Shown: one piece after another, positions 5,587 through 28,232 of the stretch
How positions within the stretch are numbered: position 1 is the first letter of the stretch
How the letters are laid out: the number at the start of each line of letters is the position of its first letter
Source: an uncultured Lachnospiraceae bacterium
Lineage (GTDB): Bacteria; Bacillota; Clostridia; Lachnospirales; Lachnospiraceae
Direction of reading: 5' to 3'
Length of the DNA stretch: 36,781 nt
Assembly (NCBI GenBank): GCA_902762955.1
Contig: CACWQH010000030.1
Coordinates: forward strand, 1-36,781
Notes under the pieces: model-generated
Told to the model about the DNA's origin: nothing
What the model saw: only the letters and a program-made list of their open reading frames with translations
The model's database searches: none
Program-made: the position numbers and the translations under genes

Positions 5587-6684
5587 ATGAGCGGTTCAAG
5601 CTTTGGAAAACTGTTTAAAATAACCACCTGGGGAGAATCCCATGGAAAAGGTGTAGGAGTTGTTATAGACGGCTGCCCTGCGGGTCTTTCCCTTTCAGAA
5701 AATGATATTCAAAAATTCTTAGACATAAGGAAGCCCGGTCAAAACGAGTTTACAACCTTAAGAAACGAGGATGACAAAGTAGAGATATTGTCCGGTACAT
5801 TTGAGGGAAAAACTACCGGTACCCCCATCTCTCTTATCGTATATAACAAGGACCACCATTCCACAGATTACGGAAATATAGCAAGCTGTTATCGTCCGGG
5901 ACATGCGGATTATACTTATGACGAAAAATACGGTTTCAGGGATTACAGAGGCGGCGGACGTTCCTCCGGACGTGAAACCATAGGTCGTGTCGCAGCAGGT
6001 GCGGTAGCCATAAAAATACTAAACGAGCTTGGAATCAATTTTTGTACATATGTCAATTCTATCGGCGAGTTGTCTATAGATAAAAATAATTTTGATAAAG
6101 AAGAAATAAATAAAAATCCTTTTTATATGCCGGATGCTTTATGTGCTTCAAAAGCAAGCGATTACCTAAAAAATATAATCAAAGAAAGCGATTCCGTAGG
6201 TTCATCTGTAGAATGTATAATAAGTGGTGTTCCTGCCGGAATAGGCGAGCCGGTTTTTGACAAGCTGGATGCACTCTTAGCACAGGCTGTCATGTCAATC
6301 GGTGCTGTTAAAGCTGTTGAAATCGGCGACGGTTTATCTGTAACCAACCGATTAGGCTCTGAAAATAACGACAATTTCCATATGAACAACAATAATGTTG
6401 AAAAAACAAGCAACCACTCCGGCGGAATACTCGGCGGAATAAGCGATGGATCGGACATAATATTAAAAGCCTCATTTAAACCAACTCCGTCCATATTTAA
6501 AGAGCAGCAAACCGTAACAAGCGATAAGCAGGATACCACCCTTTCCATAAAGGGCAGACACGACCCAATCATAGGGCCGCGTGCGGTTGTAGTTGTCGAA
6601 TCCATGTGTGCAATCACAATACTCGACCTCATGCTCCAAAACACGGGCACCAAGCTTTCAAATCTCAAAAAAATTTATAACTGA
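5587..6684 (+). CDS. aroC: Chorismate synthase
   Basis: Converts EPSP to chorismate, the last shared step of aromatic amino acid synthesis, using reduced FMN. 365 residues, normal length. The three family signatures are present: GKLFKITTWGESHGKGVG near the N-terminus, RPGHADYTYDEKYGFRDYRGGGRSSGRET in the middle, and SIKGRHDPIIGPRAVVVVE near the C-terminus. Start ATG follows GAGG by 8 bases. The A/T-rich upstream region contains a GGATAAG/CTTATCC hairpin (5511-5547) of unknown meaning. It converges with xerD, with a long hairpin element between them. Confidence 0.98.
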   Translation: MSGSSFGKLFKITTWGESHGKGVGVVIDGCPAGLSLSENDIQKFLDIRKPGQNEFTTLRNEDDKVEILSGTFEGKTTGTPISLIVYNKDHHSTDYGNIASCYRPGHADYTYDEKYGFRDYRGGGRSSGRETIGRVAAGAVAIKILNELGINFCTYVNSIGELSIDKNNFDKEEINKNPFYMPDALCASKASDYLKNIIKESDSVGSSVECIISGVPAGIGEPVFDKLDALLAQAVMSIGAVKAVEIGDGLSVTNRLGSENNDNFHMNNNNVEKTSNHSGGILGGISDGSDIILKASFKPTPSIFKEQQTVTSDKQDTTLSIKGRHDPIIGPRAVVVVESMCAITILDLMLQNTGTKLSNLKKIYN

Positions 6685-6742: not shown

Positions 6743-6955
6743 AAAAATACCTACTGAAAATTAGACGGTTAGAAGTGCATTTAGTCCGATTTGCGTAAAA
6801 TCAGCAATATGGACTTGAAAAAATTCGCCCGGAAATCGATATGTTTGAGCGAAGCGAGTTTATCGATTTCGTGCGAATTTTAAAAGTACATATGCACTGA
6901 TTTAGCAAATTGATGGCTAGCACTTCTAACCGTCTAATTTTCAGTAGGTATTTTT
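6743..6955 (+). repeat. Long hairpin element, copy 1 (conserved blocks, variable paired stems)
   Basis: A 36-base perfect inverted repeat (6743-6778 and 6920-6955) encloses 141 bases that also fold on themselves. Conserved blocks shared with the copy at 25665-25862: GATTTGCGTAAAATCAGCA (6788-6806), GAAATCGA (6832-6839), apical GTTTGAGCGAAGCGAGTTT (6843-6861), TCGATTTCGTGC (6863-6874) and GCACTGATTTAGCAAAT (6894-6910). The segments between them (6807-6831 and 6875-6893) differ from the other copy but pair with each other. The T run at the right edge and the A run at the left suggest it also ends transcription of the convergent genes aroC and xerD. It carries no gene. Confidence 0.85.
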
Positions 6956-6959
6956 ATTA

Positions 6960-7844
6960 TTATGATTTAGCACGCGGATGTGCCTTGTCGTATTCTTGTT
7001 TGAGTTTGCTTTGGCGGCTCTTAAGGTATATCTGTGTGGTTGATATATCCGAGTGCCCAAGCATTTCCTGAACCGCTTTTAAATCCGCACCATTATTAAC
7101 GAGATGCGATGCAAAAGAGTGTCTTATCATGTGTGGTGTTATATCCTTATCAATTCCCGCTTTTCTCGCATAGGCTTTAATAAGCTTCCAAAAGCCCTGT
7201 CTGGTCATCTTCTCTCCTTTTAGGTTGGTAAAAAGAAGAGCACTGTCTCCACACATATCAGGTCTTGCATTTTTTATATAATATTCCAATGCCGATTTAC
7301 AAGTATTTTCAATCGGAATTACTCTTTCCTTGTTATTATCCCTGCACAATATATAATTAAGCGTAAGATTTACATCCTCAAGCTTAATAGAAATAAGCTC
7401 GGATACTCTTAAGCCCGTTGCATAAAGAAGCTCCAACATAGCTTTATCTCTTATTTCTTTGTTACTTCTGTCGGAAGGCTGTTCCAATAAAAGATTTATC
7501 TCCTCGATGGATAAAACATCAGGAACCTTCTTGTCAATCTTCGGAGCCTTAAGCTTATCGGTGCAATCTTCAGAGATAACTTTATTCTTGAATAAATACA
7601 TGAAGAAAGATTTAATGCTCGCAACATTTCTTGATATAGTTGCCGAGGACATACCCTGCTTGTCCAATGAGCTAATATATGTACTTAAGTCCGTAGCATT
7701 TACATCATGTACGTCTTCAATACCATTGCTGCTAAAATATTTGCACATCTTAAGTAAATCTCTTTTATAAGATGAAATGGTATTTCCACTTGACCTTTTT
7801 ACTTCACTTAAGTAATTTATATATTTGTCAACATACTCTCCCAT
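6960..7844 (-). CDS. xerD: Tyrosine recombinase XerD
   Basis: Site-specific recombinase of the Xer family, expected to resolve chromosome dimers at dif with a partner recombinase. N-terminal SAM-like core-binding domain at about residues 1-85 and catalytic domain after about 105. Catalytic residues are visible: Arg in TGLRVSELISI, HMIRHSFASHL (HxxR), LGHSDISTTQIYLK with the second His and nucleophilic Tyr. About 294 residues, normal for XerD. The start is set at the ATG at 7844, preceded by AGGGG at 7 bases; an upstream in-frame start has no ribosome site. Co-directional with the SpoIIM-like gene and nudix gene, the order found around xerD in Bacillus and Clostridium, which favours XerD over an integrase. 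Confidence 0.9.
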   Translation of the reverse strand: MGEYVDKYINYLSEVKRSSGNTISSYKRDLLKMCKYFSSNGIEDVHDVNATDLSTYISSLDKQGMSSATISRNVASIKSFFMYLFKNKVISEDCTDKLKAPKIDKKVPDVLSIEEINLLLEQPSDRSNKEIRDKAMLELLYATGLRVSELISIKLEDVNLTLNYILCRDNNKERVIPIENTCKSALEYYIKNARPDMCGDSALLFTNLKGEKMTRQGFWKLIKAYARKAGIDKDITPHMIRHSFASHLVNNGADLKAVQEMLGHSDISTTQIYLKSRQSKLKQEYDKAHPRAKS

Positions 7845-8066
7845 GGATATTCCCCTTATCATTCAGGCATAAAATGTTACAATATGTCATAAAGAAAAAT
7901 AAGTAAAAATATTATGTCATATTTTGCCTACAAGTATGATTTTAAATTCTAATTAACATAAAATCAAGTAGATTTTTTTCTGTAAACCATTGTAAAATCT
8001 ACGTTTTTTGCCTCATTCTACAAAATAGAGAAAGCTTTGACTTTTGATTTACTACATCTTGTTTTT

Positions 8067-25355: not shown

Positions 25356-25428
25356 ATGTTCGTTGTGAGCCTGCGAGCCGTTAGGTTAGGTATGGGCTAA
25401 TATTTGTTTTGTCAAGGAGGTGCTAACG

Positions 25429-25614
25429 ATGGCAAAGTGTAGTATTTGTGAAAAGAGCGTTCATTTTGGTAACAATGTGAGCCATTCTCATAGAAGATCA
25501 AACAGAATGTGGAAGTCAAACATTAAGTCTGTTAAGGCAATGATTAACGGTACTCCAAAGAGAGTTTACGTATGTACTCAGTGTTTGAAGTCCGGAAAAG
25601 TAGAAAGAGCATAA
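25429..25614 (+). CDS. rpmB: 50S ribosomal protein L28
   Basis: 61 residues from the ATG at 25429, which has AAGGAGGTG 6 bases upstream; an in-frame GTG at 25420 overlaps that site and is unlikely. KCSICEKSVHFGNNVSHSHRRSNRMWKSNIKSVKAMINGTPKRVYVCTQCLKSGKVERA is typical L28. Two Cys pairs (CSIC and CTQC) make this the zinc-binding form. It faces asp23-fakA, as in Bacillus, and has its own terminator. Confidence 0.98.
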   Translation: MAKCSICEKSVHFGNNVSHSHRRSNRMWKSNIKSVKAMINGTPKRVYVCTQCLKSGKVERA

Positions 25615-25616
25615 TA

Positions 25617-25661
25617 AAAAAAGTGTGTTACAAGAACAATTCTTGTTGACACACTTTTTTT
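25617..25661 (+). terminator. Terminator after rpmB
   Basis: AAAAAAAGTGTGT...ACACACTTTTTTT stem with an inner ACAAGAA/TTCTTGT stem, starting 3 bases after the stop codon. A near-identical copy (inverted) lies at 25883-25912 beside the tex stop codon. Confidence 0.92.
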
Positions 25662-25664
25662 ATT

Positions 25665-25862
25665 GATTATAAGATTAAGGCAGCTTGTATAGCTAACCAA
25701 CGATTTGCTAAATCAGTGCGTTCAAATTCTTTGTATGTGCACGAAATCGAAAACTCGCTTCGCTCAAACAGTTCGATTTCTGAGCACATACATGCGAATT
25801 ATCACTGCTGATTTTACGCAAATCTGGTCAAATGCTATACAAGCTGCCTTAATCTTATAATC
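25665..25862 (-). repeat. Long hairpin element, copy 2
   Basis: This fills most of the 305-base gap between rpmB and tex. A 29-base perfect inverted repeat (25665-25693 and 25834-25862) encloses the same conserved blocks as the copy at 6743-6955, here in minus orientation: GATTTGCGTAAAATCAGCA at 25806-25824, apical GTTTGAGCGAAGCGAGTTT at 25751-25769, GCACTGATTTAGCAAAT at 25703-25719. The intervening segments have the same lengths as copy 1 (25 and 19 bases) but different sequence, and they pair internally. It also lies between convergent genes. No gene is present. Confidence 0.85.
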
Positions 25863-25879
25863 TTATATAATTTTTCAAA

Positions 25880-25918
25880 AGTCGTGTCAACAAGAATTGT
25901 TCTTGTGACACATTTTTC
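25880..25918 (-). terminator. Terminator after tex (inverted copy of rpmB terminator)
   Basis: Minus strand TGTCACAAGAA...TTCTTGTTGACACG followed by ACTTTTGAAAAATT. Its asymmetry (bulged TTG on one arm) shows it is an inverted copy of the rpmB terminator with only a couple of differences. Confidence 0.75.
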
Positions 25919-25919
25919 A

Positions 25920-28067
25920 TTAGTCTACCATCGAAAGCTGTATTCTCTTTTTCTCTAAGTCTACTCCTATTACGGTTACGTCTATGATGTCGCCGACGGA
26001 TACTACCTCAAGCGGATGCTTGATATATTTTTTGCTCATTTTGGAGATGTGCACAAGTCCGTCCTGATGAACGCCTATATCTACAAAGGCTCCGAAGTCT
26101 ATTACATTTCTGACTGTTCCCTTTAACTGCATACCCTGTGTTAAATCCTTCATTTCAAGGACATCACTTCGAAGGATTGGCTTTTCAAGTTCTTCACGTG
26201 GATCTCTGCCCGGTTTTTCGAGCTCCTTTAATATATCTATCAGTGTAGGTTCACCAAGTCCTATCTCTTCTGCTGTCTTTTTGGTATCCTTAACCATGCT
26301 CTTTATGGCATTTCCTTTTATACCGCCGGACTTTAAATCATCCTCTGATATATTGAGTTTTTTCATCAACAGCTTGGTTGCCTCGTAGCTTTCCGGATGC
26401 ACACTTGTTGAGTCAAGTACCTCATCTCCGTCCAGTATTCTCATAAAGCCAGCGCACTGCTCATAGGCTTTAGGACCAAGCTTCGGAACCTTTAACAAAT
26501 CCTTACGGTTTGTAAATCTTCCGTTATTTTCCCTATATGATACTATGTTTTTAGCTATCGGCTTACTTATTCCCGATATATATGATAAAAGCTGTGGTGA
26601 CGCGGTATTTAAATCAACCCCGACATTATTTACACAGTCCTCGACAACTGCTGTAAGTGCGTTATCAAGGTTTTTCTGATTCATATCATGCTGATACTGA
26701 CCGACACCTATGGATTTTGGATCTATCTTAACAAGCTCTGCAAGAGGATCCTGAATTCTTCTTGCTATAGATGCAGCACTTCTCTGCCACTCATCAAAAT
26801 CAGGCAATTCTTCTGTGGCTGCTTTACTTGCAGAATATATAGAAGCTCCCGCTTCATTTACTATTACATACTTAATATCCTTACCGATTTCTTTAAGCAG
26901 ATCCACTATAAGCGCTTCTGACTCGCGGCTTGCGGTTCCGTTTCCAAGGGAAATGAGAGTAACCTTATATTTTGCTATGAGCTTCTTTAAAATCTCCCTT
27001 GCCTCAAGCTCTCTTTTCTTACCCATAGTCGGATAAATAATAACCGTATCAAGTACTTTTCCTGTTGCATCCACAACAGCAAGCTTGCTTCCATGATTGT
27101 AGCCCGGATCCCAGCCAAGTACAGTGTGCCCTGCTACAGGAGGCTGCATAAGAAGCTGATGGAGGTTTTTGCCAAATACATTTATCGCTCCTTCTTCAGC
27201 TATCTCTGTAAGTTCATTTCTTATCTCTCTTTCTATGGACGGAGCTATAAGTCTGTCATAGCTGTCTGCTATGGCTTCCTCGATATATTTTGAGCTTTCA
27301 TGCTCCGGTCTGTAGATAATTGTTTTATTTAAATACTTTATTATTTCTTCAACAGGTGCTTCAATCTTAACGGTAAGGAACTTTTCCGCTTCACCTCGAT
27401 TTATCGCAAGCACACGGTAGCCGGTTAATTTCTTTATATCATCCTCAAATTCATAGTACATCTCATATACGGACTTAGCTTCCTTATCCTTTGCAGAGAT
27501 TATAATTCGTCCTTTTTCTCTTGTAAGGTCTCTTATAACCTTTCTGTACTCTGCCTCATCAGCATAGTTTTCCGCAAGTATATCCTTGGCACCGGCGATG
27601 GCATCCTCAACTGTATTAACTTCCTTTTCCTCGGAAATGTATGCCTTCGCTTCCTCTTCAATTGTCTTTTTAGTCATCTGAAGGGCAATTATATTAGCAA
27701 GTCCTTCAAGTCCTTTTTCTTTGGCAACGGTTGCTCTGGTCCTGCGCTTTGGTCTGTACGGTCTATAAAGGTCTTCAAGAACAACCATGGTCATAGCATC
27801 CTCAATCTGCTTTTTTAACTCGTCGGTAAGCTTGCCCTGCTCCTCAATGGTTGCAAGTATAGACGCTTTCTTTTCCTCAAGATTTCTAAGATATGTAAGC
27901 CTTTCATCAAGACTACGGAGCTGCTCATCATTTAATGAGCCTGTTACCTCCTTCCTGTATCTTGAAATGAAAGGTATAGTATTTCCTTCGTCTATTAATT
28001 CTATAGCCTTTTCAACCTGCCACTCCTTGATATTAAGTTCTCCGGCTATCACTTTTCCTATGTTCAT
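25920..28067 (-). CDS. tex: RNA-binding transcription accessory protein Tex
   Basis: 715 residues, normal length. Tex N-terminal helical domain, then the YqgF/RNase H-like domain beginning LGWDPGYNHGSKLAVVDATGKVLD near 325, a helix-hairpin-helix region NTASPQLLSYISGISKPIAKNIVSYRENNGRF, and a C-terminal S1 domain (MQLKGTVRNVIDFGAFVDIGVHQDGLVHISKMS). Tex is an RNA-binding protein that affects transcription; its exact role is not settled. GGAG lies 7 bases before the ATG. Confidence 0.97.
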   Translation of the reverse strand: MNIGKVIAGELNIKEWQVEKAIELIDEGNTIPFISRYRKEVTGSLNDEQLRSLDERLTYLRNLEEKKASILATIEEQGKLTDELKKQIEDAMTMVVLEDLYRPYRPKRRTRATVAKEKGLEGLANIIALQMTKKTIEEEAKAYISEEKEVNTVEDAIAGAKDILAENYADEAEYRKVIRDLTREKGRIIISAKDKEAKSVYEMYYEFEDDIKKLTGYRVLAINRGEAEKFLTVKIEAPVEEIIKYLNKTIIYRPEHESSKYIEEAIADSYDRLIAPSIEREIRNELTEIAEEGAINVFGKNLHQLLMQPPVAGHTVLGWDPGYNHGSKLAVVDATGKVLDTVIIYPTMGKKRELEAREILKKLIAKYKVTLISLGNGTASRESEALIVDLLKEIGKDIKYVIVNEAGASIYSASKAATEELPDFDEWQRSAASIARRIQDPLAELVKIDPKSIGVGQYQHDMNQKNLDNALTAVVEDCVNNVGVDLNTASPQLLSYISGISKPIAKNIVSYRENNGRFTNRKDLLKVPKLGPKAYEQCAGFMRILDGDEVLDSTSVHPESYEATKLLMKKLNISEDDLKSGGIKGNAIKSMVKDTKKTAEEIGLGEPTLIDILKELEKPGRDPREELEKPILRSDVLEMKDLTQGMQLKGTVRNVIDFGAFVDIGVHQDGLVHISKMSKKYIKHPLEVVSVGDIIDVTVIGVDLEKKRIQLSMVD

Positions 28068-28093: not shown

Positions 28094-28232
28094 GGTTGTA
28101 TACTGATTTATATATCTATCGCAGGCACGCTCTCGCTACTCTCGGACGCAGCGGTACTAAGCTCGGTAAACCTCACTAAGTACCGGCGTCCTCAAAGTAC
28201 CTGCTTATAGATATATAAATCAGTATACAACC
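28094..28232. repeat. Long hairpin, unrelated core
   Basis: A 26-base perfect inverted repeat (28094-28119 and 28207-28232; sequence begins GGTTGTATACTGATTTATAT) encloses GCAGG/CCTGC, GGACGC/GCGTCC and GGTACT/AGTACC inner stems, so all 139 bases can form one hairpin. The core does not match the conserved blocks of the elements at 6743 and 25665 but the design is similar. It is GC-richer than the surrounding DNA. It sits between the start of tex and the end of the 28280 gene. Confidence 0.75.

What the first reader, a model, noticed from the sequence alone, without database searches (positions are those of the whole stretch)
6743..6955. Repeated long-hairpin element with conserved blocks and covarying variable stems
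Seen: the 213 bases at 6743-6955 and the 198 at 25665-25862 (opposite orientation) share five blocks with near-identical spacing: GATTTGCGTAAAATCAGCA, GAAATCGA, GTTTGAGCGAAGCGAGTTT at the hairpin tip, TCGATTTCGTGC and GCACTGATTTAGCAAAT. Between blocks, the segments are of equal length in both copies (25 and 19 bases) but unrelated in sequence, yet each pairs with its own partner segment. The outer arms (36 and 29 bases, perfect) also differ between copies. So sequence is free while pairing is kept: that is strong two-copy covariation, favouring a structural DNA or RNA role. Constant-end transposons do not look like this. Inference: a structured RNA, a long bidirectional terminator family, or a mobile hairpin that enters terminator loops. 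I know of no named family matching it.
Basis: seen in the sequence. Interest (0 to 1): 0.85.

Follow-up and report, generated by a model that had tools for sequence, protein, structure and literature searches.

The report
Dispersed hairpins with rewritten arms
A gut-type bacterium carries dozens of long DNA hairpins that share a conserved centre, while their arms differ from place to place yet match each other, and relatives show both arms changing together, as if one arm had been copied onto the other.

Summary
The two window copies belong to a family (here H1) with 47 copies in this Lachnospiraceae-like genome, found in 15 of 37 same-genus genomes and, more weakly, in 24 of 392 genomes of the order, own included. 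A 142-position core of conserved internal loops and covarying stems (99.1% of cells paired; 0 of 500 shuffles reach it), capped mostly by GAGC-GNA-GCGAG, sits between long arms. Of 62 single copies with readable context, 36 lie between convergent genes.

The main result is how arms change. At one orthologous site the core is 99.3% identical over 134 positions and both flanks match, but both arms differ, each well paired in its own species. At another the core is inverted and arm substitutions and indels are mirrored. A second hairpin family at a fixed site (28094-28232) shows 7 pairs changed on both sides and none on one side between close species. This fits template switching plus a strand-specific pairing constraint (79 G.U against 28 A.C). 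In 8 of 14 ortholog comparisons arms were kept. Function, mobility and expression are unknown. No Rfam match.

The parts
6743..6778 (+). copy 1, left arm (36 bp, perfect partner of 6920-6955)
6784..6923 (+). copy 1, conserved core (model R1, 138.9 bits)
6843..6861 (+). copy 1, tip GTTTGAGCGAAGCGAGTTT
6920..6955 (+). copy 1, right arm
25619..25652 (-). copy 2, outermost repeat, 3' side: terminator-like hairpin sequence
25665..25693 (-). copy 2, 3' arm (29 bp, perfect partner of 25834-25862)
25690..25828 (-). copy 2, conserved core (model R1, 150 bits)
25751..25769 (-). copy 2, tip
25834..25862 (-). copy 2, 5' arm
25884..25917 (-). copy 2, outermost repeat, 5' side (inverted copy of 25619-25652)
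   Evidence: the relative G023 has a single such hairpin and no core at this site
28094..28232 (.). separate hairpin family (H3) with the same arm behaviour, used as a fixed-site comparison

Best explanation
A dispersed hairpin element. Its inherited part is a ~140-nt structured core, capped mostly by GAGC-GNA-GCGAG, whose pairing is constrained on one strand (as RNA, or as single-stranded DNA of that strand). The core sits in long arms that in many copies are local to the site. Shown: many copies; conserved internal loops with covarying stems; dissimilar but paired arms at different sites and, at one clearly orthologous site, between species; mirrored multi-base changes, mirrored indels and an inverted core. 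Inferred: the arms are renewed by DNA template switching at the hairpin (the polymerase copies one arm while making the other), and selection for a stable hairpin keeps the result. Inferred more weakly: the hairpin acts at gene 3' ends, often between convergent genes, as a stable RNA end or transcription barrier. How cores spread to new sites is not shown.
For: 47 copies; core covariation score 0.403 against shuffled mean 0.188, 20 of 38 pairs changed on both sides. C36 site: core 99.3% identical to its G024 ortholog over 134 positions (next best among the loci held 89.6%), flanks 95.1% and 94.8%, arm identities 0.75 and 0.66 against 0.61 for shuffled letters; neither species' arms found elsewhere in the loci held, bar 21-base A/T-rich matches; 36 and 33 of 48 arm bases pair with the opposite arm in the two species. 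C25 site: core 95.1% identical (next best 79.7%) but inverted, with mirrored substitutions and mirrored indels read by eye from the alignment. H3 at one site: G000/G024 7 pairs changed on both sides, 0 on one; G000/G022 9 and 0; arms of 26 against 25 bp, equal on both sides, in G013 and G004. Isolated mismatches in H1 arms of 94 copies: 79 G.U, 28 A.C, 31 other distinct contexts; on 85 of these copies the ratio reversed when the other strand was folded. Convergent context 36 of 62, against 4 of 30 neighbouring ORF pairs in the window with the same caller. PMC8794818 (abstract and passages read) gives multi-base compensatory changes, stem insertions and loop inversions as template-switch footprints.
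Against: In 8 of 14 ortholog comparisons the arms are kept (identity 0.86-1.00), so renewal is occasional. In three of the four dissimilar-arm cases (C5:79769, C26:20562, C14 in G023) the core is of a common type, so independent insertion is not excluded. Template switching alone does not say where a wholly new arm sequence comes from. Inversion of the core could also come from recombination between the arms. A mutational strand bias could give the G.U excess. In co-directional gene contexts the core lies opposite to the genes in 17 of 23, which does not suit a simple 3'-UTR role. No transcript data.
Confidence: 0.58

Rival explanations
1. An ordinary structured RNA: arms drift by stepwise compensatory mutation through G.U intermediates under selection; no special copying.
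For: Core covariation and G.U excess over A.C.
Against: H3: 7 and 9 two-sided changes with 0 one-sided in two comparisons, though G000/G019 has 3 and 2; equal arm-length change on both sides; an inverted 141-nt core; dissimilar arms beside a 99.3% identical core.
Confidence: 0.15
2. A MITE or transposon that carries its arms; different arms at one site are independent insertions into a hot spot.
For: Some groups of copies share arms (for example C14/C45, C5:79769/C22:3364); the same convergent sites hold different hairpin families in different species; presence is patchy; three of four dissimilar-arm sites have common-type cores.
Against: C36 and C25 cores match their orthologs far better than any paralog among the loci held. 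C26:20562 has paralogs with 96-97% identical cores, and its homology to one of them stops 12 nt and 3 nt outside the core. No Y1 transposase found (genome 89% complete); other transposases were not searched for.
Confidence: 0.15
3. The core alone inserts into loops of terminators that already exist; the arms are old terminator stems.
For: Terminator-like repeats flank several copies; at site 1 the close relative G024 has the stem without the core.
Against: That core-less stem looks like a deletion between short repeats, since part of the inner arm remains on one side only (my reading). Nine of 10 long inverted repeats in the 92 kb scanned belong to H1 and the tenth to H3; all four stretches scanned hold H1, so this sample is not neutral.
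Confidence: 0.1

Closest known systems
REP/BIME/REPIN elements with RAYT (Y1) transposases
   Same: Palindromic intergenic repeats in tens of copies, sometimes in opposed pairs; some are reported inside longer palindromes (PMC3733652, start of abstract and passages).
   Different: REPs are described there as 20-40 bp; here there is a 140-nt core plus long arms of free sequence; no Y1 transposase was found.
Template-switch-made hairpins (Monttinen and Loytynoja 2022, PMC8794818)
   Same: Perfect stems, multi-base compensatory changes, stem insertions and loop inversion from one event (abstract and passages).
   Different: There: RNA genes (rRNA, microRNA), with inverted loops of about four to eight bases. 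Here: a dispersed bacterial element with arms of tens of bp and a ~140-nt inverted core.
Quasipalindrome-associated template-switch mutation in E. coli (PMC7202029; search listing only)
   Same: Imperfect inverted repeats are hotspots of template-switch mutation.
   Different: A mutational process, not a repeat family.
Bacterial MITE-like repeats (RU-1/RU-2; PMC2759123, search listing only)
   Same: Multi-copy small intergenic mobile sequences.
   Different: MITEs are, as I recall, defined by conserved terminal inverted repeats; here the centre is conserved and the ends vary.

Membership tests
REP/REPIN with RAYT | Y1 (PF01797) transposase in the genome | tested here: not met
   0 matches in the own genome (88.9% complete); the same search rings in 5 of 14 control genomes
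REP/REPIN with RAYT | 20-40 bp palindrome | tested here: not met
   core 142 positions plus arms
REP/REPIN with RAYT | GTAG or CGTC tag at one end | not tested
   not searched for
MITE | conserved terminal inverted repeats shared by copies | tested here: not met
   for many copies homology to any other stops within about 30 nt of the core; some groups do share arms
MITE | target-site duplication | tested here: inconclusive
   No clean empty and filled pair; the sites compared had remnants or other hairpins
Known Rfam RNA family | match to a covariance model | tested here: not met
   19 sources, gathering: only an L10 leader, away from the element; 5 sources, E up to 1: none
Intrinsic terminator | GC-rich stem, short loop, T run | tested here: inconclusive
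   0 found at the two window copies, but the scan allows loops of 3-8 only
Template-switch hairpin evolution | mirrored multi-base stem changes | tested here: met
Template-switch hairpin evolution | loop inversion between stems that stay in place | tested here: met
   C25 core inverted in G024; recombination between the arms would do the same
Functional RNA | transcript of the predicted strand | not testable with these tools
   no RNA-seq

The most novel reading that the evidence does not exclude
A class of bacterial elements in which only the hairpin centre is inherited and spread, while the arms are re-made at each site by self-templated copying, so that structure rather than sequence is what is passed on. 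It would occur across an order of gut bacteria and form not only single hairpins but ~650-700-nt cloverleaf composites.
Probability: 0.3. Interest if true: 0.85.

Novelty: new variant of a known kind. Interest (0 to 1): 0.68.

Why it matters
Paired changes on both sides of a stem are the standard sign of a functional RNA. Here is a bacterial genus where both arms can change together in one block, apparently by copying, so that covariation and selection can be told apart in one system with many copies and many close species. It would also make the origin of long perfect stems in bacteria directly testable.

Tried and rejected
Rfam: no match. Y1 transposase: none. Phage and plasmid collections: no match to copy 1's core at E up to 1e-5. 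Loss of SbcD as a licence for palindromes: 13 of 37 same-genus genomes have it over the cut-off; of the 8 genomes with at least 20 H1 copies, 1 has it (G013). One-sided hypergeometric about 0.14, worked by hand; phylogeny and completeness not corrected. Not significant. Core model on 80 named-record loci around the tex gene: no hit, so the element is not tied to a named organism here. A first, unanchored count of mismatches gave G.U 24 and A.C 25 in the core because it slipped across internal loops, and ran past the hairpin ends; replaced. Searches were given only part of the 97 rows: nine were left out, among them both C56 copies and close orthologs of listed copies, and L150, L269 and L118 fell out for short flanks. 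repeat the counts with the nine put back (L118 still out, L164 added); results moved little (G.U/A.C 76/25 to 79/28; convergent 31 of 56 to 36 of 62). A first hand-picked ortholog table held C38/L265, which lacks a matched left flank, and missed C14/L284; replaced by the rule-based table. A first ORF-context count missed genes under 80 codons. Literature: searches; none of the listed titles or abstract starts describes this family. PMC2267715, PMC3733652 and PMC12306157 were read only as passages. My notes call the gene at 25920-28067 PNPase; Pfam shows it is Tex.

Full report
What is there. Copy 1 (6743-6955) lies between chorismate synthase (5587-6684, +) and a tyrosine recombinase (6960-7862, -). 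Copy 2 (25619-25917, reverse) lies between tex (25920-28067, -) and a 64-codon ORF that I read as rpmB (25420-25614, +; name recalled). Both gene pairs converge.

The family. The tip 19-mer has 16 exact and 28 further places with 1-2 mismatches in the genome; the reversed control has 35, which is uninformative because the motif is nearly mirror-symmetric. A model built from 24 cores finds 47 places with E below 1e-7: 45 over the whole model and 2 cut by contig ends; of the 23 further matches at E up to 1, 22 are the opposite strand of the same places and one is another contig-end piece. In 61 genomes, 16 have matches: 15 of 37 in the genus, with 0 to 47 copies each, and 1 of 24 others. In 392 genomes of the order, 24 (own included) match at E up to 1e-4, in 16 of 173 genera, at most 8 candidates per genome being scored. 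Outside the own genome those matches are weaker. Of 22 such or viral loci looked at (L122, L359-L379), 20 show the tip by my pattern, each at the end of a predicted stem, from short and irregular (L361) to very long (L363, -185 kcal/mol); L378 and L379 do not. I did not measure arm similarity among these; several look alike. The exact 19-mer occurs in 3 viral contigs, each inside its own stem.

Core structure. On 97 matches (94 distinct), 99.1% of 3566 cells pair, against 88.0% in shuffles; 20 of 38 pairs have two-sided changes; sliding the partner by one column drops pairing to 42-53%. Five of seven pairs of helix 2 and three of eight of helix 1 never vary. In pairs with a Watson-Crick majority there are 95 G.U cells against 8 A.C, 46 of the 95 from one pair; by type, 16 against 5. 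The alignment is fitted to the model.

Arms. For 94 copies with at least 60 nt on either side, the longest perfect run has median 21 bp and maximum 44; 51 reach 20. Isolated mismatches flanked by three Watson-Crick pairs on each side are 79 G.U, 28 A.C and 31 other by distinct context. On 85 of these copies, folding the opposite strand gave 30 G.U and 71 A.C, so the bias lies in the sequence and marks one strand. RNA would explain it; so would single-stranded DNA of that strand, or a mutational strand bias.

Arms need not be inherited with the core. Core C26:20562 is 97.1% and 96.4% identical to two paralogs; homology to the second stops 12 nt and 3 nt outside the core. Other groups of copies do share arms.

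Orthologous sites. I fetched 28 of 36 G024 copies and 16 of 35 G023 copies and compared all 44 with 43 own rows, asking for a match of at least 80 nt on both flanks: 14 comparisons at 12 own copies, after setting aside two cross-matches between the halves of one composite. In 8 the arms are kept (0.86-1.00). In C41:21955/L260 they are partly changed (0.84/0.77), with a core of another type. In C25/L281 the core is inverted and the arms (0.70/0.73) carry mirrored substitutions and indels. In four the arms are close to shuffled letters: C36/L276, C5:79769/L259, C26:20562/L288 and C14/L284, the last with the core inverted. Only C36 and C25 have a core that singles out its ortholog (99.3% against 89.6%; 95.1% against 79.7%), so the other three could be separate insertions.

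A fixed-site control. The hairpin at 28094-28232, just upstream of tex, has a different conserved centre and occurs at the same place in six genomes (G000, G024, G022, G019, G013, G004); G023 lacks it, G015 gave no match and G009 only flank. Its arms differ strongly between species yet pair fully in four of six and with one or two mismatches in the other two. Among equal-length arms, two-sided and one-sided changes are: G000/G024 7 and 0; G000/G022 9 and 0; G000/G019 3 and 2; G024/G022 7 and 0; G024/G019 7 and 1; G022/G019 8 and 1; G013/G004 2 and 0. The arms of G013 and G004 are one base shorter on both sides. The scarcity of one-sided changes is what template switching predicts and stepwise compensation does not.

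Sites 1 and 2 in relatives. Site 1: G024 keeps the stem but lacks the core, with a junction that looks like a deletion between short repeats; G004 has a core with other arms; G022, G019 and G013 have hairpins with what look like remnants. Site 2: G023 has one simple terminator-like hairpin where the window genome has inverted copies of it on either side of the element; G024, G019 and G022 have another hairpin family there. So these convergent sites tend to keep a hairpin while its sequence turns over.

Context. With a simple ORF caller on 97 rows, 36 single copies lie between convergent genes, 23 between co-directional and 3 between divergent; 20 composite copies, 13 undetermined and 2 on short loci were left out; orthologs count separately. 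In the own genome alone it is 13, 6 and 2. In the window the same caller gives 4 convergent, 4 divergent and 22 co-directional neighbours. In co-directional places the core is opposite to the genes in 17 of 23.

Composites. Five places in this genome hold two cores in opposed orientation about 350 bp apart. The two folded, with a short middle hairpin, give predicted cloverleaves of 656 and 704 nt, -316 and -350 kcal/mol, z -34 and -21 against 20 shuffles.

Verdict. The pattern is real and not in Rfam. I read it as a dispersed hairpin element whose centre is conserved and whose arms are renewed in place by copying between arms, under pairing constraint on one strand. The copying step is inferred from footprints; the function at gene ends is a guess from position; the means of spread is open. 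The rechecked counts did not require a change of odds.

Noticed in passing
window 28094-28232: A second long hairpin upstream of tex with an own conserved centre and fast-changing, mirrored arms in six species; in G013 and G004 an extra hairpin sits at its tip.
   Followed up: partly
L198, L200, L201 (site of copy 2 in G024, G019, G022); L182, L184, L185, L187, L192, L193, L195 in the own genome: Another repeated hairpin family, or two related ones, with a conserved centre (TTAAGTGATAAC or GTTAAGTAACACGTGCC) and long arms.
   Followed up: no
own genome, 23 places: Terminator-like repeat GTGAGCCTTGTCACA with up to 1 mismatch (reversed control 0), alone or around H1 copies.
   Followed up: partly
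L024 1368-2023, L027 979-1682: Two H1 hairpins in opposed orientation with a short middle hairpin fold as a ~650-700-nt cloverleaf.
   Followed up: partly
genus genomes: SbcD over the family cut-off in 13 of 37 genomes, and in 1 of 8 H1-rich ones; not significant.
   Followed up: partly
H1 tip: The tip reads GC-GNA-GC in most copies; d(GCGAAGC) is, as I recall, an unusually stable DNA mini-hairpin, so a single-stranded DNA role deserves a test.
   Followed up: no
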